52,751 bases of DNA. Source: a virus. Below, piece by piece: positions 4,978 to 32,244 of the stretch. The stretch covers positions 1 to 52,751 of IMG/VR virus record IMGVR_UViG_3300036826_000291; one strand, given 5' to 3'. The first letter of the stretch is position 1. The number at the start of each line of letters is the position of its first letter. The notes under the pieces are model-generated. The model was not told the origin of the DNA. It was given only the letters and a program-made list of their open reading frames with translations, and did not search any database. The translations under genes were made by a program, and so were the position numbers.

Positions 4978-5970
4978 ATGGCCTTCATCCATATCGACGG
5001 CTTCGACTACTACACCGGCATCACCACCGGTGCCGCGCCGCTCAGCCAGCGATACACGACCGGCACCAACGAGTCGCTCGTTGCCGGTCGCTTCGGCGGC
5101 CTGGCGCTGCGCCAGGGGCAAGGCGTGTTGCGCAAGTCGCTGCCGGCGGCGAGCGCCACCTTGACGGTCGGCGCCGCGATCAATCCGATGGCGCTGCCGT
5201 CCTCGGCGCAGGGGCAATTCATTTTCCGCACCGCCGGTACGCAGGTGCTGCAGATCGGCATCGGCAGCGACGGGCGCGTGCTCGCCGGCCGCGGCGACTT
5301 CACAACGCAACTGATCGCGCAGTCGGCGGCCGGCGTCATCGTCGCCGGCGTCTTTAGCTATCTGGAAATCGTGCTGACGCGCAACGCATCCGCCGGCGCG
5401 GTCGAGGTCTTCTGCAACGGCGCGTCGGTGCTGGCGGCGAGTGCGGCCAACACCGGCGCGACCGACCCGGACCAGCTCGACTTCGGCAACGGCTTCGGCG
5501 CGCAGCCGACCGTCGACCTCGACGACTTCTACATCGCCAATACCGCCGCGCGCGTCGGCGAACGCCGGGTCGAGACGCTCTCCCCGAACGGCGACTCGCA
5601 AAAGAACTGGACGCCGCTCACGGGGACCGACAACTACGCCATGGTGACCAGCTTCGACGGCGACACCTCCTACGTGTCCGCCGCCGCCGCCGGCACGCTC
5701 GACCTTTACGACTTCGCCAATCTTTCAAGCCTGCCGGCGAACGTCTCGGCGGTGCAGACCATCATGTCGGCGCGCAAGGACGACGCGACCACCCGCACCG
5801 TGCGCGCTCGCGTTCGTTCCGGCGGCGCCAACGCCAACGGCGCGACGGTGGGCATGGTCACCGCCTACGGGCTGACGGCAGACATTTTCGCGGTCGATCC
5901 GAACACCTCGGCGGCGTGGCTCGCCGCCGCCGTCAATGCTATCAAGGCCGGCCCGGAGGTGGTGAGCTGA
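4978..5970 (+). CDS. Virion protein with LamG/concanavalin-like N-terminal region
   Basis: A 330-residue protein. The N-terminus (Ile-Asp-Gly-Phe-Asp-Tyr-Tyr) and the following roughly 190 residues of alternating strands, ending Val-Asp-Leu-Asp-Asp-Phe-Tyr-Ile-Ala, look like the concanavalin/LamG jelly-roll found in many phage adhesins. The C-terminal 130 residues are beta-rich with a short terminal helix. No signal peptide is present. Position in the tail-fibre region supports a virion-associated carbohydrate-binding role, which is inferred. Confidence 0.6.
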   Translation: MAFIHIDGFDYYTGITTGAAPLSQRYTTGTNESLVAGRFGGLALRQGQGVLRKSLPAASATLTVGAAINPMALPSSAQGQFIFRTAGTQVLQIGIGSDGRVLAGRGDFTTQLIAQSAAGVIVAGVFSYLEIVLTRNASAGAVEVFCNGASVLAASAANTGATDPDQLDFGNGFGAQPTVDLDDFYIANTAARVGERRVETLSPNGDSQKNWTPLTGTDNYAMVTSFDGDTSYVSAAAAGTLDLYDFANLSSLPANVSAVQTIMSARKDDATTRTVRARVRSGGANANGATVGMVTAYGLTADIFAVDPNTSAAWLAAAVNAIKAGPEVVS

Positions 5971-15500: not shown

Positions 15501-15832
15501 GCGTCATCCTCGATTCTGATCGGCGAAATCGAGAGCGCGGTGAGCGGACGATTGGGCTTGCCGTCGGCGCGCAGCGGCCGCAGCGTGCTTTGTGTGCGCC
15601 ATGCTTGAAGCGCGGCCTCAAGCGAGGGAAAGCGCATCGCCTTGGCGACGTCCGGCGAACTGGTGAAATAGCCGATGCCGCCGAACGCATTGACATCGAA
15701 GGCGACGATATATTCGCCGTCGATCACGCGATCGGCGAGCATCGCGCCGGCCGCCTTGACCGCATCGGTCACCGGCCGCTCGCCCTCGCCGGCGACATGG
15801 AATTGTCGCAAGACCCAAGCCATGACGATCAC
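15497..15832 (-). CDS. Small early protein, unknown
   Basis: A 111-residue protein starting at GTG 15832 (overlapping the recT stop, GTGA) or, three codons later, at ATG 15823; no strong ribosome site distinguishes them. It has strands Glu-Tyr-Ile-Val-Ala-Phe-Asp and Ile-Gly-Tyr-Phe-Thr and no recognised motif. It sits directly after recT and is likely translated with it. Confidence 0.5.
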   Translation of the reverse strand: MIVMAWVLRQFHVAGEGERPVTDAVKAAGAMLADRVIDGEYIVAFDVNAFGGIGYFTSSPDVAKAMRFPSLEAALQAWRTQSTLRPLRADGKPNRPLTALSISPIRIEDDA

Positions 15833-16704
15833 GCGGCGTTGTCGGGTTGCACGTCATCGGGCGGTGGCGGCTCCGGTTGCGTCGGTGGCGGCTCCTGTTG
15901 CGCGCCGCCGAAATGGTCGAGCGCGCCCATCACGCCGCCGGTGACAAGCTCGCGCTCGTGCTGCCGCTCGCTCGGCACCTGATCAAAGGCACCGTCGTCA
16001 TCGTCGCGGCGCATCAGGTGATCGAGGTCGTCGCTCGACGCCGGCAATCGCTTGTGCAGATTGCGCAGCACAGTCTTCAGCGCCGCTTCCTCCCACCATT
16101 GGCCCCACATCGGGCCGTCCTTGGCGCGGCTGATCGCGCGGCGCTTCTCGATGTCGGCGGCCGACATGACCTTGATCATCACGCCGCCGTCCTTGGTCTC
16201 GGCCATGGCATAGGCTTTGATCACCTTGCCGCCGCCATCGCCGGGCGAGTGGTAGAGGTGCTCGCCGTGCTCGTCCTTCCAGTATTTGAATTCCTCGCCC
16301 TCGCGCACCACGTCGACCGACACCGATTTGAACTGACCGCTGTTGCGGAATCGCTTCAACAGGCCGCCGACCATCGGCATCCACACCGCAATCTGCTGAC
16401 GGTAGGTGGGCGATTTCGGACTATTGTCGGCAAAGGCGACGATGGTGCCCTCGCGGCCGTCCGGCAACAGGCCGTCGTTGGCGGCGCGCATGCAGGCGTT
16501 GAAAAACGTCTGGCGATTGACGGCGATAAGGTCGACGTTCAAGGCGCAGGCGGTCATCACCACGCGCACGAATTTTTCCGGCGGCATGTGCGCGGGCAGC
16601 GCCATGCGGAATTCGTCGAGGCGGCTGTGCAGCTGCTCGCGCAGCGCCACCATGGGATGAATGGTCGGTTGCTGTTTCGCTCCCGCCTTGGTCGTGGTCG
16701 CCAT
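15829..16704 (-). CDS. recT: RecT-family single-strand annealing protein
   Basis: A 291-residue recombinase that anneals complementary single strands after exonuclease resection. The start is ATG 16704, preceded by GGAGG; upstream in-frame codons fall in the pentamer tract. Family marks are Pro-Pro-Glu-Lys-Phe-Val-Arg-Val near residue 41, Asn-Asp-Gly-Leu-Leu-Pro-Asp-Gly-Arg-Glu near 76, Trp-Met-Pro-Met-Val-Gly-Gly-Leu near 107 and Gly-Pro-Met-Trp near 194, plus an acidic/Pro-rich disordered tail. It pairs with the YqaJ-type exonuclease at 18475, two genes upstream in the same operon. Confidence 0.92.
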   Translation of the reverse strand: MATTTKAGAKQQPTIHPMVALREQLHSRLDEFRMALPAHMPPEKFVRVVMTACALNVDLIAVNRQTFFNACMRAANDGLLPDGREGTIVAFADNSPKSPTYRQQIAVWMPMVGGLLKRFRNSGQFKSVSVDVVREGEEFKYWKDEHGEHLYHSPGDGGGKVIKAYAMAETKDGGVMIKVMSAADIEKRRAISRAKDGPMWGQWWEEAALKTVLRNLHKRLPASSDDLDHLMRRDDDDGAFDQVPSERQHERELVTGGVMGALDHFGGAQQEPPPTQPEPPPPDDVQPDNAA

Positions 16705-16744
16705 TTGCGTTTTCCTCCGCGATTGAAGGGGAAGGGGGTTTACC

Positions 16745-17140
16745 CCTTCCCCGATTTGCCGGCCTTGCCGGGCCGCGCCATGCGATGATCCGACTTGCCA
16801 ACCGAGCCAAGCCAAACCCCGCCCGGCCTCGCCGGCCTCGCCGCGCAAAACCGGGCAATGCAACGCAATGCAACCCTAGCCAAGCCTCGCCGAGCGATGC
16901 CGAGCGATGCCGCGCCGGCCGCGCGCTGCAACGCCGCGCCGTGCTCAACGCTGACAAGCGCGCCGAGCCCTGCCGGCCTTGCTCTGCCCGGCCTAGCCCG
17001 GCCGTGCTCTGCAACACCGTGACGCGCACCGCCGAGCACTGCACCGCCTTGCCGGCCTTGCCTCGCCAAGCCATGCTCGGCCGTGCCTTGCTACGCACCG
17101 CCTCGCCACGCCCCGCCATGCCATGACAAGCCAGACCGGG
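16745..17140 (-). repeat. GGCNN pentanucleotide-phased tract upstream of recT
   Basis: About 400 bp between the 17173 gene and recT in which, on the transcribed (minus) strand, GGC or near-GGC recurs about every five bases with the other two positions varying, for example GGCAT-GGCGG-GGCGT-GGCGA-GGCGG near 17100-17130. There are occasional phase slips of one base and a few TAG stops. It is not a simple tandem repeat, because the units differ. It is open in several frames merely because the pattern avoids stops, and I see no protein-like sequence. It forms the 5' leader of recT. Confidence 0.8.
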
Positions 17141-17172
17141 CGCCGCCTTGCCAAAATCGGACAGCCGATCCG

Positions 17173-17673
17173 TCATGAAGCTCGCGCCTCCACCCGCTCG
17201 CGCTTGTGGGTCAGCCGTTCACGCGCCATGCGCACCAGATCGCAAATATCGAGCAATTCCCGGTAGCGGGTTTCAAAGGCGCGCAGGTCGCGCTCGGCGG
17301 CGCGCAGCACCGCAAGCTGCAAGTCGCGGCTGCCCATCACCTCGGTCGCGGTGCGGTAGCTGGTGCCCTTGGCATCCGACACCGACAGGAACGCGCGCCG
17401 CGGCGGCTTGTCGTCGTCGGGATCGACCATGCGCACGATGCGAATCAGTTCGCGCGCTTGGTCGAGCCGGTGCTGGTGCGCGGCGGTCTTGTCGTTCCAA
17501 TCGAAATACGGATGCAGCGGGTCGCCGCGCTCGCGCGCCTTGCGCACCACGTCGTCCGGTTCGAGCCGCCCGCCGTGCTCAAAGGCTATCTGCTCAAGCG
17601 CCGCGCCGATCACCTGCGGGTCGGCATGCGCGCGATTCCTGATGGTGATCGGACCGTCGCGGAACACATACAT
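17173..17673 (-). CDS. Conserved phage early protein, unknown
   Basis: A 166-residue protein with Asp-Pro-Gln-Val-Ile-Gly-Ala-Ala-Leu-Glu near residue 18 and His-Pro-Tyr-Phe-Asp-Trp-Asn-Asp-Lys-Thr-Ala near 54, then Leu-Asp-Gln-Ala-Arg-Glu-Leu-Ile-Arg. This module recurs in alphaproteobacterial phages next to recT/exonuclease genes. The C-terminal half is a helical segment with heptad character. The function is not known, and a recombination-cassette role is inferred from neighbours. Confidence 0.6.
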   Translation of the reverse strand: MYVFRDGPITIRNRAHADPQVIGAALEQIAFEHGGRLEPDDVVRKARERGDPLHPYFDWNDKTAAHQHRLDQARELIRIVRMVDPDDDKPPRRAFLSVSDAKGTSYRTATEVMGSRDLQLAVLRAAERDLRAFETRYRELLDICDLVRMARERLTHKRERVEARAS

Positions 17674-17679
17674 CGGCGG

Positions 17680-18459
17680 CTACTCCGCAGCCTGTTGCAA
17701 TTGCTCGGCAACCGGCATCGGTCCCTTGCCCTCGGCAAAGGCGTCCCACGCTGCTTCTTCCTCCAGCGACGCAAGATGGTACGACCCCGCCCATCCCTCT
17801 TTTTCGTTGCGCCAGTCGCCGACGCCGACGTCGTTGCCGCTGGCATTGATCAGATAGGCGAGCGCGTGCAGAGGACAGCGCGCGACGTTGAGCGTGCCGG
17901 TGATGCGCAGCGCCCACACCAGGAACTCGGCGCGATAGGCAAGGTTGGCGGTTTTACTGATCGTTCCGATTCGGACCATGTCCTCGCGCATGCGCGGCGC
18001 GGAACCGAAAATGCGCACCAGCGGCAGATTGCAGCTTGCCCCGGCCAGCGCCGGCCGCACGCTGACCAGCGTCGCATCGAGATGCAGCGCCGCCAGCACG
18101 TCGGTCTTGGCAATGCCGCGGTCGGTATGCGCCGCCGACTTGATCGCTTTCTTGATCGCGGTCACCGGAAAGCCATAGGTGCCGTCGCCCATGGCATAGA
18201 GCGAATTGACAAAATCTTCCTGCGGGTCGCGCGGCTTCTGTTCGACGATCGCGCCGGTTTGCTGCTGCAGCATCGCCAGCCGCGCCTTTTCCGACCACGC
18301 ATGGCAAATGAGCGGCGTGTCGCCGACAATCCAGAACTTGAATCGCTGGCGCATCGGCTCGTGCGACAGCATCGCGCCAAGCTGGATTTGCTCGGCGCTG
18401 ATCTTCGGCGGCGCGTCCTTGCGCTTGCTCGCCGCGCGCTTGGGTGACTTGGTGACCAT
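17680..18459 (-). CDS. Recombination-cassette protein with Thr-Pro-Leu-Ile motif
   Basis: A 259-residue protein between the YqaJ-type exonuclease and recT genes. It starts with a basic tail, then Val-Gly-Asp-Thr-Pro-Leu-Ile-Cys-His-Ala-Trp-Ser near residue 44, Asp-Pro-Gln-Glu-Asp-Phe-Val-Asn-Ser-Leu-Tyr near 78 and Tyr-Gly-Phe-Pro-Val-Thr-Ala-Ile-Lys-Lys-Ala-Ile near 95. Similar proteins occur in phage recombination cassettes. The pattern is reminiscent of RAMP-like folds, but I cannot confirm that. The function is unknown; assistance to recombination or DNA binding is inferred from position. Confidence 0.55.
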   Translation of the reverse strand: MVTKSPKRAASKRKDAPPKISAEQIQLGAMLSHEPMRQRFKFWIVGDTPLICHAWSEKARLAMLQQQTGAIVEQKPRDPQEDFVNSLYAMGDGTYGFPVTAIKKAIKSAAHTDRGIAKTDVLAALHLDATLVSVRPALAGASCNLPLVRIFGSAPRMREDMVRIGTISKTANLAYRAEFLVWALRITGTLNVARCPLHALAYLINASGNDVGVGDWRNEKEGWAGSYHLASLEEEAAWDAFAEGKGPMPVAEQLQQAAE

Positions 18460-18474: not shown

Positions 18475-19398
18475 TTAAGCCGCTTCCTCGTCGCGGCGCT
18501 TGTCGATGATGCGCAATATGCGCAAATTTTTTTCCGGCACGGTGTATTGCGGGCGATGCTGCGTTTTCCATGTGATTGAAAAATCCGGCACCAGCGCGCG
18601 CTCGGCCTCGCCCATGCGCGCCATCAGCAGCGTTTCGATCTGCTTGCAGCGCGCTTCGGCTTTGCTGATCTGCTCCTTGAGGTCGGCGCGCTCAATCAGC
18701 CCGGAGACAATCGCGTTATCAAAGCGCAAGTCGGCCACCTGCTCGGCCGTTTCCTTCGGCCACAAGAGCGGCAGCAGCTCGCGATCGAGCCCGTAATCGG
18801 CATCGGGCTCGCGCCCGGCGGCGAGGTCTTGCCAGAACCGCGCGACCGCATCGCGGATGCGCTGCTCCGCACCGGCATGGCGCGCCACCTCGTACAGCGG
18901 ACATTCGAGATTGAATGGGTCAACGACAAGGGCGGCGACCACGCCGAACGCGGCATCGGTCAGCAGCAGCTCGGTGAGGTTCTGCAGCACGATCCAGAAC
19001 GGCGGATTGTCCGCGGTCCATTCGCGCTTGAAGACCGACGGCGCGACGGTCTTGCATTGCAGGACGCCGAGGCCGCGCGCGTCGCCATGCACGAAATAGT
19101 CGGGCGTCGCGCCGAGCCGCAAATCCGGGTCATAGAAATACTCGCTGCATTTTTCGAGCCGCCAATCCGGCCGCTGCTCCGCAACGGCAGCTGCTACGCT
19201 CGACTCCAAGAGCTTGCCGCGCCGCAGCACCGCGCTTGCCGGTGCCGGCAGTTCGATGCCGCGCTTCTCCATGTAGAGCCGCAGCGCCGAGCAATAGGGA
19301 TGAACACCAACCGTCGCCGCGACATTCGATGCCGTCACATGCTCGGGCCGCTTGGGATGCAGTTTGCCGTCCTCGACCGGCTCGCGGATCACTGGCAT
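18475..19398 (-). CDS. YqaJ-type viral recombinase exonuclease
   Basis: A 307-residue nuclease expected to resect double-stranded ends for RecT. The start ATG 19398 overlaps the previous gene's stop region; a longer frame to 19473 lies inside that gene. PD-(D/E)xK marks include Leu-Gly-Ala-Thr-Pro-Asp-Tyr near residue 90 and Leu-Gln-Cys-Lys-Thr near 113. The usual Glu before the Lys is Gln, as I believe is seen in some related phage enzymes, so activity is likely but not certain. The C-terminal half has a coiled-coil helix and Thr-Trp-Lys-Thr. It lies upstream of recT in the same operon. Confidence 0.8.
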   Translation of the reverse strand: MPVIREPVEDGKLHPKRPEHVTASNVAATVGVHPYCSALRLYMEKRGIELPAPASAVLRRGKLLESSVAAAVAEQRPDWRLEKCSEYFYDPDLRLGATPDYFVHGDARGLGVLQCKTVAPSVFKREWTADNPPFWIVLQNLTELLLTDAAFGVVAALVVDPFNLECPLYEVARHAGAEQRIRDAVARFWQDLAAGREPDADYGLDRELLPLLWPKETAEQVADLRFDNAIVSGLIERADLKEQISKAEARCKQIETLLMARMGEAERALVPDFSITWKTQHRPQYTVPEKNLRILRIIDKRRDEEAA

Positions 19399-20246
19399 GG
19401 CGCTCGCTCCCGCTCCGGCGGAACGACAACATAGCGGCTCCGCTTGATGCCAAGCGAACCGTCGCCGGCCCAATAGTCAGCGATCAGCGTCCAGATGCCG
19501 TGAATGCGGCGCTTGTGCGCGCGCGTCCAATGCAGCGCCTTGGTGCCGGTGGTTCCGATTCTTTCGCTGTCGCCGTCTACGATCACCGTCTCGGTCGACA
19601 GCAAAATTTCGGTCCAGGCTTGCAACGGAAAAATGCCGAGTATCTTGCGGCGCGCAAGGACTTCGCGGGCAAGGCCACGATGCGGATCGTGGACTTTGCG
19701 GCCGATAACTTTGGGCGTGTTGATCAGCAGCAGGAAGGCGTAGAGCCGCCACAGCATCGCTGGCACTTCATAGGGCTCGACATGCGAACCGTCAGTATTC
19801 TGGAGCCGGTAGTTTAGAGTTTCTCGAAATATTGCGTGCTCTATCGTGTTCCAGGTCAACGGGCCGGTCTTCGCGAGCGAATTGCTCAGCGCCATAACGC
19901 CGATGCGCCCGCCGAGAAAATTCGGGCCTGTCCGCGCAGCACAATAGACGGTAGCCCATTCTTGGCCTCCACCTTGGCGGACAAGCATGAACCCGATGCG
20001 CTCGCCGTTCTTGTCGTCGAATTCAATCCACGTCCTTGCAGCAGGAAGGAACGACCACTCGACCGAAGGGAAGGCAGCGACAAGCATCTGGTCAAGAATC
20101 GCGCCGGCGGCGTCATAGATTTGCGTGACCTCGAAGCAATGGAATTCTTCGCGAAACTGCGGCAGCAATCCGCCGCGATCTTGGAACGTCCGCCGTTTCA
20201 CCGGCAGCGTCATGTCCTTGACGATGCGATAGGCGAGCGGTGTCAT
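19389..20246 (-). CDS. Conserved rhizobial-phage protein, unknown
   Basis: A 285-residue protein with somewhat lower GC than its neighbours. Conserved-looking segments are a central His-Ala-Ile-Phe-Arg-Glu and, at the C-terminus, Arg-Ile-His-Gly-Ile-Trp-Thr and Leu-Gly-Ile-Lys-Arg-Ser-Arg-Tyr, a signature I associate with rhizobial prophage proteins. The function is not known. It is the second gene of the leftward early operon, overlaps the previous stop (ATGA) and runs 10 bp into the exonuclease gene. Confidence 0.55.
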   Translation of the reverse strand: MTPLAYRIVKDMTLPVKRRTFQDRGGLLPQFREEFHCFEVTQIYDAAGAILDQMLVAAFPSVEWSFLPAARTWIEFDDKNGERIGFMLVRQGGGQEWATVYCAARTGPNFLGGRIGVMALSNSLAKTGPLTWNTIEHAIFRETLNYRLQNTDGSHVEPYEVPAMLWRLYAFLLLINTPKVIGRKVHDPHRGLAREVLARRKILGIFPLQAWTEILLSTETVIVDGDSERIGTTGTKALHWTRAHKRRIHGIWTLIADYWAGDGSLGIKRSRYVVVPPERERAPCQ

Positions 20247-21471: not shown

Positions 21472-22695
21472 GTGTCGGCCGCCGGCGGCATCGAGTGCCA
21501 CCACGGCGATTGCCTCGCCGTGCTGCCGACGCTCGCCGCCGACAGCATTGATGCCTGCATCACCGACCCGCCCTATCACCTGCAGTCCATCGTCAAACGC
21601 TTCGCCAAGACCGGGCGCACCGACAAGACACGCTCGCGCTCCGGGCCGCACCAGCGCACCGCCAACGGCTTCATGAACAAGCAATGGGACGGTGGCGCCA
21701 TCGCGTTCGATGCGGCCACATGGGCGGCGGTGCTGCGCGTGTTGAAGCCCGGCGCCTACATCGCCGCGTTTTCCTCGACCCGCACATTCGCGCGCATGGC
21801 GGTCGCGATCGAGGATGCCGGCTTCATCACGCATCCGTTCATCGCCTGGATTTTCGGGCAGGGATTCCCCAAGGCGCATCGCGTGCATGACGACGCATGG
21901 GAAGGCTGGCGCTACGGCACGCAATCGTTAAAGCCGGCGATCGAGCCCATCTACATCGGGCAGAAGCCATTCGAGCCGGGGCTGACCGGCACCGAGAACG
22001 TGCGCAAGTGGGGCACCGGCGCAATCAACATCGACGGCTGCCGGGTGCCGAGCGCGGACGCGGCCGTGCCGCGCGGCGGCGAGGCAACGGCCGGCAAAGC
22101 CTATGCGGCCAGCGGCGCGACCAACTTTGCAGCGAAGCCCGGCATGCGTCGCGGTGTCAGCAATGGCGGCGATGCGCTCGGCCGCTGGCCGGCGAACGTC
22201 ATCCTTGACGGCAGCGCCGAGGTGCTCGCGGCGTTTCCCGAGGCGCCAGGGCAGCAGCGCCGCGTCGGCCCGGATCACGGCGACAAGACCTCGCACGGAA
22301 TCTACGGCGACTATGGACCGCGCAACGAACACGCGCCGCGCGCGGATCACGGCTCGGCCGCGCGGTTCTTCTACACCGCCAAGGCGGATCGCCACGAGCG
22401 GCTCGGCTCAAAGCATCCGACCGTCAAGCCGCTCGACCTGATTGCCTACCTCATTCGCCTGCTGACCCCGCCGGGCGGCATCGTGCTGGACCCGTTTGCC
22501 GGCACCGGCACCACCGCCGAGGCGGCGTTCAACGAGCATATGCGCGCGGTGCTGATCGAGCGCGAGGCCGAATACGTGGCCGACATTCATCGTCGCATCG
22601 CGCTCATGCGCGCCGGTCGCGACGAACGCATCCGCCAAGTCGCCAAGGCAAAGGCGGCCGACCGGCCGCCTGATCATGGACCTTTGTTCGCGTGA
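21472..22695 (+). CDS. DNA methyltransferase, N4/N6 amino class
   Basis: A 407-residue enzyme starting at GTG 21472, nine bases after the previous stop and preceded by AAGGCGGGG. It has motif IV Thr-Asp-Pro-Pro-Tyr at residues 31-35 and motif I Asp-Pro-Phe-Ala-Gly-Thr-Gly-Thr-Thr near residue 341, i.e. the beta-class order with a long variable target-recognition region between. It methylates adenine-N6 or cytosine-N4; the site cannot be read from sequence. No restriction partner is adjacent, so it is a solitary enzyme. Lack of an obvious CcrM-like C-terminal domain argues against it being a CcrM orthologue. Confidence 0.88.
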   Translation: MSAAGGIECHHGDCLAVLPTLAADSIDACITDPPYHLQSIVKRFAKTGRTDKTRSRSGPHQRTANGFMNKQWDGGAIAFDAATWAAVLRVLKPGAYIAAFSSTRTFARMAVAIEDAGFITHPFIAWIFGQGFPKAHRVHDDAWEGWRYGTQSLKPAIEPIYIGQKPFEPGLTGTENVRKWGTGAINIDGCRVPSADAAVPRGGEATAGKAYAASGATNFAAKPGMRRGVSNGGDALGRWPANVILDGSAEVLAAFPEAPGQQRRVGPDHGDKTSHGIYGDYGPRNEHAPRADHGSAARFFYTAKADRHERLGSKHPTVKPLDLIAYLIRLLTPPGGIVLDPFAGTGTTAEAAFNEHMRAVLIEREAEYVADIHRRIALMRAGRDERIRQVAKAKAADRPPDHGPLFA

Positions 22696-28372: not shown

Positions 28373-28625
28373 TCGGGACAAGCCGGGACGTGTCCCGTGT
28401 CCCGATTTGTCCCGATTGGAGATAAGGCATGGCGACACAACAAAAAATGCCGGGACGGGCGGTGAAAGTCGCCCCGGCAGACATAGACCCAGTCGGAATG
28501 TCTGACCGGGGGGGCCTTTTTCACCCCGCAATGAGGTTTTCAAAGCCATGTTTTTGCGCTGCAGTATTTCGGGACAACTCTATATCCCTCCCCGTAGGGG
28601 AGGGTAGTTTGTCCCGATTGTCCCG
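28371..28625. other. TGTCCCG iteron-like array: replication origin candidate
   Basis: The heptamer TGTCCCG or its complement occurs at 28374-28380, 28391-28397, 28398-28404, 28408-28414, 28570-28576, 28610-28616 and 28619-28625, with CGGGACG variants at 28384-28390 and 28451-28457. The first cluster is a nested dyad (10-bp perfect arms at 28371-28380 and 28398-28407). An 8-bp perfect hairpin (CCCTCCCC-GTA-GGGGAGGG, 28586-28604) lies between the two clusters. Clustered iterons next to a replication gene, partly AT-rich, suggest an origin or a binding site for a phage initiator. Confidence 0.6.
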
Positions 28626-28683
28626 TTTCACCTGTAACCATTTTTTCTTCGGCGCTGCACAAAAACGAAAAACGAGGGGCAAA

Positions 28684-29193
28684 ATGCTGATCAAAGCCGG
28701 CGACCTGAAATTCAACCCGCTCGACGGCATCGCCACCGCGCCGCCCGCGACCTGGAACGGCGCGCATGTCGGCGTACAGCTCGCCGAAGCGTTCCGCACG
28801 CTTGCCGCCATGCCGGCCTGCCGCGCGAGCGCCTCCGGTTTCTGGCCGGCCTATACGCACGACTGGCAAGATCTGTTGGCGCAGCAGGAAGCGGAAGCCG
28901 ACGACAAGGCCAGAGCCAACGCGCAGGCCAACCGCATCCGCATCGCGCCGAGCATCGAGGCGGTCAGCCGAATGGAAACCGCGATCTACTGGCCGGCCCG
29001 CTACCTCGCGCCGCAAAGCCCGGACATGGCGCGCGCCGTCAACGCGGTTGCCTGCGCGATCGCCTTCGAGCGCGATGCCTCATGGGTCGCGCGGCGCTAC
29101 GGCGGCAACGTGCGCCAATGGCAGCGCGATTATGTCGACGGCTGCATCGTCATCGCCGTCAAGCTGGTGCGCGATTGCGTGGCGGTGTTTTAA
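28684..29193 (+). CDS. DUF6362-like protein
   Basis: A 169-residue protein with a strong ribosome site (GAGGGG) before ATG 28684. The C-terminal half (Ser-Arg-Met-Glu-Thr-Ala-Ile-Tyr-Trp, then Ala-Arg-Arg-Tyr-Gly-Gly and Gln-Arg-Asp-Tyr-Val) resembles DUF6362, thought to be an HTH-type domain. The frame stays open back to ATG 28429, which also has a good ribosome site (GGAGATAAGG), but the intervening translation does not look like protein and spans the iteron array. I prefer 28684. Confidence 0.55.
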   Translation: MLIKAGDLKFNPLDGIATAPPATWNGAHVGVQLAEAFRTLAAMPACRASASGFWPAYTHDWQDLLAQQEAEADDKARANAQANRIRIAPSIEAVSRMETAIYWPARYLAPQSPDMARAVNAVACAIAFERDASWVARRYGGNVRQWQRDYVDGCIVIAVKLVRDCVAVF

Positions 29194-30841: not shown

Positions 30842-31483
30842 ATGATGGCGGCGAACTTCCGCGACCGCATCGTTGAACTGCGGCGCATCAAGGCCGGCGA
30901 GCTGCGGGCGCATGCCAAGAACTGGCGGCTGCACCCGGAAGGCCAGCGCAGCGCGCTCACCGCGATGCTCGCCGACATCGGCTTTGTCGGCGCGCTCATC
31001 GCCCGGCAGGTCGACGGGCATCTCGAGCTGCTCGACGGACACCTGCGCGCCGACCTCGCGGCCGACAGCGAGGTGCCGGTGCTCGTGGTCGATCTGACCG
31101 ACGATGAAGCAGCCAAGGTGCTCGCCACCTATGATCCGCTGTCGGCGCTCGCCGTCACCAACGCCGAGGCGCTTGCCGATCTGCTCAAGGGTGTCGAACT
31201 CGACGAACATGCCGAGTTGCGGCGCATGATCGCCGACCTCACCGTCAAGCTCGAACGCAAAGAGACCGAAGGCCCGGACGACCGCATCGACGTCCCCGGC
31301 ATGGAGCTGCAGCCGCACGAGCACTACGATTTCCTCGTGGTGCTCGCCACGACAACGCACGAATGGAACGTGCTGTGCGATCGCCTCGCACTCAAACCGG
31401 AGAAGCGGCGCGGACGCATGGGCACCTGCCGCGCGATCCGCGCCGAGGCGCTGCTCAAGCTGCTGCCGGCATCGGCAAAATGA
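30842..31483 (+). CDS. ParB-like nuclease-domain protein
   Basis: A 213-residue protein. The N-terminal half contains Ala-His-Ala-Lys-Asn-Trp-Arg-Leu-His-Pro, then Gly-Phe-Val-Gly-Ala-Leu-Ile and Leu-Leu-Asp-Gly-His-Leu-Arg-Ala, the ParB/sulfiredoxin-like fold with its Asp-Gly-His-x-Arg box. The C-terminal part is phage-specific. In phages such proteins often accompany DNA-modifying enzymes. It starts Met-Met at 30842, overlaps the glycosyltransferase gene (ATGA), and its job is unknown: DNA nicking, CTP-dependent binding or regulation are all possible. Confidence 0.72.
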   Translation: MMAANFRDRIVELRRIKAGELRAHAKNWRLHPEGQRSALTAMLADIGFVGALIARQVDGHLELLDGHLRADLAADSEVPVLVVDLTDDEAAKVLATYDPLSALAVTNAEALADLLKGVELDEHAELRRMIADLTVKLERKETEGPDDRIDVPGMELQPHEHYDFLVVLATTTHEWNVLCDRLALKPEKRRGRMGTCRAIRAEALLKLLPASAK

Positions 31484-32244
31484 TCGACTACCGAATCGTG
31501 GTGCCGTCACGCGGCCGGCCGGGCAACGTCGCAAAGCTGTTGTCGTTGATGCCGAGCGCCTGCATCTGTGTCGATCAACGCGAGCGCGCCGACTACGCCG
31601 CGGTGGTGCCGAAGAAGCAGCTGCTCTTGCATCCGCCGTCGAGCGGCGGCCCGGCCGCACGCAACTGGATCATCGAGAACGTCAAGGCAACTTGCCTCAT
31701 CCAGTGCGACGACGACCTGAGCGGCGTGCGCTCGACCATCGGCAGCCGGCGCTTTCTCACCGACCCTGACGAGGTGATGGCGGTTCTTGAGAACGCCATG
31801 ACCGCCTGCCACGATCTCGGCCTGACGACGTTCTGCTTTTCGCGCACCATCAATACGACCGTGATTCATCCAGAGCTGCGGCCGATCGTGCCGGTGCAGC
31901 AGGTCTATGGCTGTTGGGGCGTGATGGGCGCGGCGCGGCATCGGCTCTACGACACGACGTTAAAGAGCCGCGCCGATCTCGATTGGAGCTTGGCGACCTT
32001 GCTGCACGACCGTTGCGTCTATGCCGATGTGCGTTTCTATTTCGACTTCGGCTCGTCATTCAGCGGCGCCGGCGGCAACTCCGGGCTGGTCACGGCCGAC
32101 GACTTCAAGACCTCGACCGAGATTGTCGCGAAGCGGTGGGGTCGCGCGATCTCGTTCAAGCGACCCGGCTATCACAAGGGCGGCGGCGACACCGTTGCCG
32201 GCAAGCCCGACGTGCGCCGCAGCAACCGGCTGGCGCAGCGGTGA
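31480..32244 (+). CDS. Glycosyltransferase-like protein (GT-A fold; TET-associated-type)
   Basis: A 254-residue protein. Tyr-Arg-Ile-Val-Val-Pro-Ser-Arg-Gly-Arg at residues 4-13, Cys-Val-Asp-Gln-Arg-Glu at 30-35, Leu-Leu-Leu-His-Pro-Pro at 48-53, Ala-Arg-Asn-Trp-Ile-Ile at 60-65 and Gln-Cys-Asp-Asp-Asp at 75-79 resemble the phage glycosyltransferases found with TET/JBP dioxygenases that glycosylate modified bases. No TET-type gene was recognised in this genome. It is flanked by a ParB-like gene and a sulfotransferase-like gene in a coupled trio. The substrate, DNA or a surface glycan, is unknown. Confidence 0.6.
   Translation: MIDYRIVVPSRGRPGNVAKLLSLMPSACICVDQRERADYAAVVPKKQLLLHPPSSGGPAARNWIIENVKATCLIQCDDDLSGVRSTIGSRRFLTDPDEVMAVLENAMTACHDLGLTTFCFSRTINTTVIHPELRPIVPVQQVYGCWGVMGAARHRLYDTTLKSRADLDWSLATLLHDRCVYADVRFYFDFGSSFSGAGGNSGLVTADDFKTSTEIVAKRWGRAISFKRPGYHKGGGDTVAGKPDVRRSNRLAQR

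What the first reader, a model, noticed from the sequence alone, without database searches (positions are those of the whole stretch)
16745..17140. A 400-bp GGCNN pentanucleotide-phased tract in the recT leader
On the transcribed strand, GGC recurs in a five-base phase about 80 times with two freely varying positions. This is neither a tandem repeat nor a codon pattern (period 5, not 3). It must be maintained by selection or by a specific mechanism such as protein binding on one helical face every half-turn, RNA structure or recombination hot-spotting next to the annealing protein. I know of no function.
Basis: seen in the sequence. Interest (0 to 1): 0.72.

Follow-up and report, generated by a model that had tools for sequence, protein, structure and literature searches.

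The report
Phage VIPR guide-RNA array beside recT
The odd five-base rhythm is a string of guide-RNA sequences of a recently described phage weapon (VIPR, a simple relative of CRISPR), whose two free letters per repeat appear to spell out, codon by codon, a gene of a rival phage; it is a good new example of a known kind, not a new kind.

Summary
On the - strand, 17152..16762 is a period-5 tract of about 80 units, GGY-NN (relaxed to NGC-NN), with GGY conserved and NN almost maximally variable. The recT interpretation is wrong. Two genes upstream lies a Vipr homologue (17680-18459 -): same PHROG family as Vipr of phage SUSP1, AlphaFold model matching Csm3/Cas7 RAMPs; between them is a conserved partner gene (17173-17673 -). 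Of 72 loci with a related Vipr, 67 carry such an array (0 of 91 other phage loci), but none carries recT nearby. This is a VIPR system (bioRxiv 2026, PMC13142463): guides with GGY/NN repeats read with one skipped base between NN pairs. Tested independently on this clade, the 1-nt skip clearly exceeds shuffles (61 vs 15 +/- 4.6). One relative's guide spells the conserved motif of rival vipr genes. The window's first guide decodes as PLFIIGVDGVKTRIFD, a motif of GpA-type terminase large subunits. Unlike the characterised type II, guides have no separate tails: runs abut through 4-nt phase-shift junctions (RAGGCY|GGC), probably the 'staggered' form the preprint mentions. Expression and activity are untested.

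The parts
16762..17152 (-). vrRNA array: about 80 pentanucleotide units (GGY/NN, relaxed to NGC/NN), five runs separated by GGCC|GGC 4-nt junctions
17055..17152 (-). run R1, 20 units; variable NN = CC CT TT AT AT GG GT GA GG GT AA AC CG AT TT GA = PLFIIGVDGVKTRIFD; predicted target terminase large subunit (GpA family) of a rival phage
16976..17053 (-). run R2, 16 units; no target found
16918..16974 (-). run R3, 12 units with an internal 1-nt slip
16835..16916 (-). runs R4/R5, 17 units with an internal 1-nt slip; no target found
16762..16833 (-). runs R6/R7, 15 units with an internal 1-nt slip
16728..16752 (-). 10-bp G/C hairpin just after the last unit (possible 3' tail or end of the array transcript); the 101-nt stretch as a whole does not fold much better than shuffles (z -1.67)
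17680..18459 (-). vipr: 259-aa RAMP-fold protein, phrog_4652 (same family as SUSP1 Vipr)
17173..17673 (-). candidate vap (Vipr-accessory protein), phrog_15946, next to vipr in almost all related loci; no similarity to SUSP1 Vap1
15829..16704 (-). recT (PF03837), downstream neighbour, not part of the system
18475..19473 (-). YqaJ/RecE-like exonuclease, upstream neighbour, not part of the system

Best explanation
The tract is the guide-RNA (vrRNA) array of a phage-borne VIPR system. Shown: a vipr gene, a conserved partner gene and a GGY/NN array form a module that recurs in many phages without recT; the NN pairs, read with one skipped base, match phage genes with the skipped base at the codon wobble position. 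Inferred: the array is transcribed, Vipr subunits coat the RNA one per 5-nt unit (holding GGY and presenting NN), the complex binds the dsDNA of a competing phage through NN-skip-NN pairing and represses the target, here the terminase large subunit gene of another tailed phage (run R1). The 4-nt junctions RAGGCY|GGC mark where one guide ends and the next begins.
For: 1) Vipr: P0003 and SUSP1 Vipr both fall in phrog_4652 (E 1.9e-16 and 1.4e-96); hhalign of the family against SUSP1 Vipr gives probability 97.9, E 4.7e-13, with the glycine-rich GVGDWR..G stretch aligned. The AlphaFold model has pLDDT 87, and the top PDB matches are RAMPs, mostly Csm3/Cas7. 2) Association: 67 of 72 vipr-bearing loci (some near-duplicates) score above the array threshold, 0 of 72 shuffled versions and 0 of 91 other phage loci do; a P0002 homologue lies beside vipr in almost all, recT in none. 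3) Code: in the window GGY entropy is 0.3-1.3 bits, NN 1.9-2.0. Over 0.9 Mb of phage DNA, 7 consecutive NN units match 61 times with a 1-nt skip (shuffles 14.9 +/- 4.6, max 28); skips of 0, 2 and 3 give 13, 5 and 18 (shuffle means 10-11) (three of the 61 positions are in L081, which had been fetched with R1). The main hit is a guide of L052 with 11 consecutive units equal to DMVRIGMGTAD of vipr genes, in frame; L052's own vipr differs there. 4) Window: R1 decodes to PLFIIGVDGVKTRIFD. Two degenerate patterns from it hit 7 contigs in IMG/VR; 6 are GpA terminases at the same codon and in frame. In 27 Rhizobiales terminases taken by family only, the summed best match is reached by 10 of 1000 shuffles and the top match by 2 of 1000.
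Against: No perfect target of R1 was found (best 11-12 of 19 units), and none for R2 or R4. R3-R7 contain 1-nt slips that the published code does not explain. No separate structured tail per guide. The 1-nt-skip excess is carried by few guides, chiefly one of L052. No expression data. The terminase assignment was found after the fact, the two patterns were loosened by hand, and its shuffle support is moderate (about 0.002-0.01 before any correction for the gene families that could have come up).
Confidence: 0.94

Rival explanations
1. The tract is a cis-acting leader of recT (RNA structure, attenuation or Chi-like recombination hot spot).
For: It directly precedes recT, and a strong hairpin lies between them.
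Against: In 60-odd loci the array goes with vipr/vap; recT is in none of those flanks and the exonuclease only in one. Fold z-score only -1.67. No Rfam family.
Confidence: 0.03
2. The tract encodes a low-complexity protein (ORF 16421-17176 -, ATGA overlap with the upstream gene).
For: The frame is open for 251 codons and its ATG overlaps the stop of the preceding gene.
Against: Period 5, not 3; the ORF runs out of frame into recT; only 13 of 47 related arrays have any fully open forward frame; the 4-nt junctions would be frameshifts.
Confidence: 0.02
3. It is a VIPR array, but decayed: a relic that no longer guides anything.
For: The GGY motif is relaxed here (first G kept in 70% of units), three runs hold 1-nt slips, and no perfect target was found in IMG/VR.
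Against: Relaxed NGC is also seen in relative L004, whose array has some 30 runs; vipr and vap are intact; R1 still spells 16 consecutive codons of a terminase motif.
Confidence: 0.15

Closest known systems
VIPR type II of Escherichia phage SUSP1 and a Pseudomonas fulva prophage (PMC13142463)
   Same: Vipr family (phrog_4652, RAMP fold), phage-borne two-gene locus, GGY/NN pentanucleotide guide RNA, 1-nt skip code, targets in rival phages
   Different: SUSP1 has separate guides, each with a conserved tail; here runs are joined head to tail by 4-nt junctions. Accessory protein is phrog_15946 instead of phrog_5926. GGY relaxed to NGC.
VIPR types with staggered arrays of overlapping vrRNAs (mentioned in PMC13142463, fig. 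S18)
   Same: Overlapping, abutting guides would describe this array
   Different: The type could not be checked: the supplement is not readable here
Class 1 CRISPR-Cas, type III Csm (Csm3/Cas7)
   Same: RAMP fold of the subunit expected to coat the guide RNA; periodic unpaired positions
   Different: No CRISPR repeats and spacers, no other cas genes among the neighbours scanned; period 5 with 3 non-pairing bases per unit

Membership tests
VIPR system | Vipr protein: small single-RRM RAMP homologue with glycine-rich loop | tested here: met
   phrog_4652 shared with SUSP1 Vipr, hhalign 97.9%, Foldseek to Csm3/Cas7. Length 259 aa, longer than the about 20 kDa typical
VIPR system | vrRNA with alternating GGY/NN pentanucleotide repeats, 9-16 units, beside vipr | tested here: met
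   about 80 units in five runs of 12-20; recurs in 67 of 72 related loci
VIPR system | NN positions recognise DNA with a 1-nt skip | tested here: met
   by sequence only, for the clade: 61 vs 14.9 +/- 4.6, other skips 13, 5, 18 against 10-11; R1 to terminase. No biochemistry
VIPR system | vrRNA transcribed and bound by Vipr | not testable with these tools
   needs sRNA-seq and pull-down
VIPR type II (SUSP1 clade) | vap1 accessory gene | tested here: not met
   P0002 does not match SUSP1 Vap1; different PHROG
VIPR type II (SUSP1 clade) | each guide followed by an invariable structured 3' tail | tested here: not met
   runs abut through 4-nt junctions; only one hairpin, at the end of the array
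VIPR, any of the seven types | assignment by the published Vipr phylogeny | not tested
   the supplement with the types could not be read
CRISPR-Cas | direct repeats alternating with spacers | tested here: not met
   array consists of 5-nt units, no long repeat
CRISPR-Cas | adaptation or effector cas genes in the locus | tested here: not met
   the immediate neighbours scanned (YqaJ exonuclease, Vap candidate, recT) are not Cas proteins by Pfam, PHROGs or NCBIfam; the whole window was not scanned

The most novel reading that the evidence does not exclude
A contiguous array form of VIPR in which one unbroken transcript of 5-nt units yields several overlapping guides, the -1 phase-shift junction (RAGGCY|GGC) replacing the structured tail, and in which carriers fight each other: guides aimed at the most conserved motif of rival vipr genes while the carrier's own vipr is altered there (L052).
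Probability: 0.4. Interest if true: 0.75.

Novelty: new member of a known kind. Interest (0 to 1): 0.58.

Why it matters
A reader without tools picked out the signature of an RNA-guided system first reported in 2026. This locus and its relatives give an independent sequence test of the published gapped code in a clade with another accessory gene, suggest guide by guide what such phages attack (terminase, vipr itself, possibly a ParB-like protein and an integrase), and give a grammar for finding guide boundaries in tail-less arrays.

Tried and rejected
Exact 10-unit R1 pattern in IMG/VR: no match. R1 with up to 3 mismatches in 397 Rhizobiales genomes: none. Decoded peptides against Pfam: too short, nothing. 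R2 and R4 eight-unit patterns: 4 and 49 scattered hits without a common gene or extension, taken as chance. P0002 against SUSP1 Vap1: no similarity. P0002 fold search: no significant match, weak winged-helix-like hits at E 0.2 or worse. Rfam: nothing. Plasmid collection: no match. Self-targeting of R1 in the window: best 7 of 19 units, not in its own terminase motif. A first, coarser test of the skip rule on 0.6 Mb showed only a slight excess for skip 1 and was replaced. recT-leader, helical-face and coding explanations rejected as stated.

Full report
OBSERVATION. The tract shows a strong period of five: lag-5 autocorrelation 0.508 against 0.310 +/- 0.025 in shuffles, highest period-5 Fourier power in 52.7 kb, no period 3. 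Parsed as units of a GGY-like trinucleotide plus NN on the - strand it runs from 17152 to 16762, 80 units. GGC occurs exactly 49 times; the rest are relaxed forms (TGC, AGC, CGC, GTC). The phase breaks by one base at 4-nt junctions of the form GGCC|GGC, giving five runs: R1 20 units, R2 16, R3 12, R4/5 17, R6/7 15; the last three hold one further internal 1-nt slip each. Position entropies in the window are 1.34, 0.34 and 0.48 bits for GGY and 1.88 and 1.98 for NN: a fixed scaffold with free dinucleotides. In the four closest loci, 42 of 53 junctions are preceded by AA or GA and 52 of 53 have a pyrimidine as the junction base.

SURROUNDINGS. On the same strand, in order of transcription: a YqaJ/RecE-like exonuclease (18475-19473), a 259-aa protein P0003 (17680-18459), a 166-aa protein P0002 (17173-17673), the tract, recT (15829-16704). 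The window is a temperate tailed phage (integrase 11875-13002, GpA-type terminase, portal, capsid); portal relatives are phages of Rhizobium, Paracoccus and Aurantimonas among others, so an alphaproteobacterial host is likely (inference).

WHAT IT IS. A paper search for pentanucleotide repeats with recT and phage led to PMC13142463, which describes VIPR: phage-encoded Vipr, an ancestral RAMP protein, with vrRNAs of 9-16 YNNGG repeats whose NN pairs recognise dsDNA with one skipped base between them. P0003 belongs to phrog_4652, and so does the protein at 28474-29061 (-) of SUSP1, which lies between intergenic stretches carrying GGY/NN repeats as the paper describes. I identified that gene as SUSP1 vipr from position, size, neighbour and flanking repeats; the record calls it hypothetical. 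Profile comparison of 51 relatives with it gives 97.9% probability. The AlphaFold model of P0003 (pLDDT 86.8) finds Csm3 and other Cas7-type RAMPs as top solved structures, and a viral protein annotated as RAMP superfamily.

ASSOCIATION. 60 relatives of P0003 came from IMG/VR, further ones from genomes and phages. Of 72 loci, some of them near-duplicates, 67 hold an array above threshold; the best shuffled locus scores 19.8 against a threshold of 40, and none of 91 other phage loci reaches it. P0002 homologues lie beside vipr in nearly all, on either side of the array, while RecT has no homologue in these flanks and the exonuclease only in L002. The module therefore moves as vipr, vap and array; recT is a neighbour in this phage only.

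THE CODE. All runs of the relatives were decoded and searched over 0.9 Mb of phage DNA, arrays masked. Seven consecutive NN units match 61 places with a 1-nt skip against 14.9 +/- 4.6 for shuffled guides (max 28); skips of 0, 2 and 3 give 13, 5 and 18, against 10-11 expected, so apart from skip 1 only the skip of 3 is slightly raised. Three of the 61 positions come from L081, which had been fetched with R1; the rest is independent of the window. Most of the excess is one guide of L052 whose first 11 units read, codon by codon, DMVRIGMGTAD, the conserved motif of Vipr; many other vipr genes carry it, but L052's own vipr reads DMVRIGAGVAD with another arginine codon, 8 of 11 units. Guides of L014 and L017 match the motif A[YF]R[IL]ADNK of ParB-like genes, and one of L047 matches IYTHIS of an integrase; these two are weaker, and the gene names there are my reading of the translations.

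THE WINDOW'S OWN GUIDE. R1 begins with AA GG, which R2 shares, and ends with AA, the junction mark; the 16 units between read PLFIIGVDGVKTRIFD. A scan of IMG/VR with pieces of R1 confirmed one contig, a GpA terminase at KGLFIIGVDGVKADILSW in frame. A pattern from the 3' part gave one hit, a GpA terminase with LQIVGVDGIKTRLFDRL. A pattern from the 5' part gave six hits, five of them GpA terminases with PLF[IL][IV]GVDG[VL]K, all in frame at the same place; the sixth is a lipase-like protein. In 27 Rhizobiales terminases taken by family only, the best R1 match falls on this motif in seven genes, and the summed match is reached by 10 of 1000 shuffles; an earlier profile test that included L081 gave 86 of 20000 shuffles at or above the observed value. 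Each of the 16 units is found at its codon in at least one of these terminases (read), though no single one has all. I take the target to be terL of a phage not in the collections (about 75% likely). The window's own terminase lacks the motif, so it would be safe.

LIMITS. Nothing here shows transcription, processing or DNA binding. Targets of R2-R7 are unknown, and 1-nt slips inside runs are unexplained. The published type could not be assigned because the supplement was not readable; the preprint's 'staggered arrays with overlapping vrRNAs' fits best. The type II marks (Vap1, separate tailed guides) are not met, so it is filed as a VIPR system but not as type II.

VERDICT. The sequence feature is real, functionally interpretable and belongs to a recently described kind. 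Interest 0.58: known in principle, but a clean, independent case with a decoded guide and a different array form.

Noticed in passing
L052:5624-5691: Guide whose first 11 units spell DMVRIGMGTAD of Vipr; matches vipr genes of many other loci but not its own vipr (8 of 11 units): possible VIPR-against-VIPR targeting with self-avoidance.
   Followed up: yes
L014:6786-6838 and L017:6763-6869: Guides matching the motif A[YF]R[IL]ADNK of ParB-like genes in L005 and L047, in frame.
   Followed up: partly
L047:5683-5745: Guide matching an integrase motif (EDIYTHIS) in L022 at 8 of 13 units.
   Followed up: no
L068:4950-5564, L069:4893-5636, L070:4944-5564: Gordonia phages ODay (gp19), Pipp (gp42) and Mycobacterium phage Saal (gp51): Vipr homologues annotated as hypothetical proteins, with a P0002 homologue nearby; well-sampled phages in which targets could be searched.
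   Followed up: partly
L067:6173-6577: A spurious-looking ORF (GKAWQGKQGMVGK...) at a Vipr relative seems made of array sequence; such low-complexity proteins in databases may be misread vrRNA arrays.
   Followed up: no
L040, L042, L049, L052: Loci with a second array on the other side of vipr (e.g. L049:3597-4089 and 5732-5915).
   Followed up: no
L011, L026, L041, L056, L066: Vipr relatives without an array above threshold (L026 may be cut by its contig end); L056 has repeats spaced by GGTTTTAC, perhaps another array form.
   Followed up: no
window 31363-32244 +: Glycosyltransferase-like gene (phrog_842, glucosyl-HMC glucosyltransferase): possible DNA modification by this phage.
   Followed up: no
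window 21472-22695 +: DNA methyltransferase-like ORF (motif DPPY), read from the translation only.
   Followed up: no
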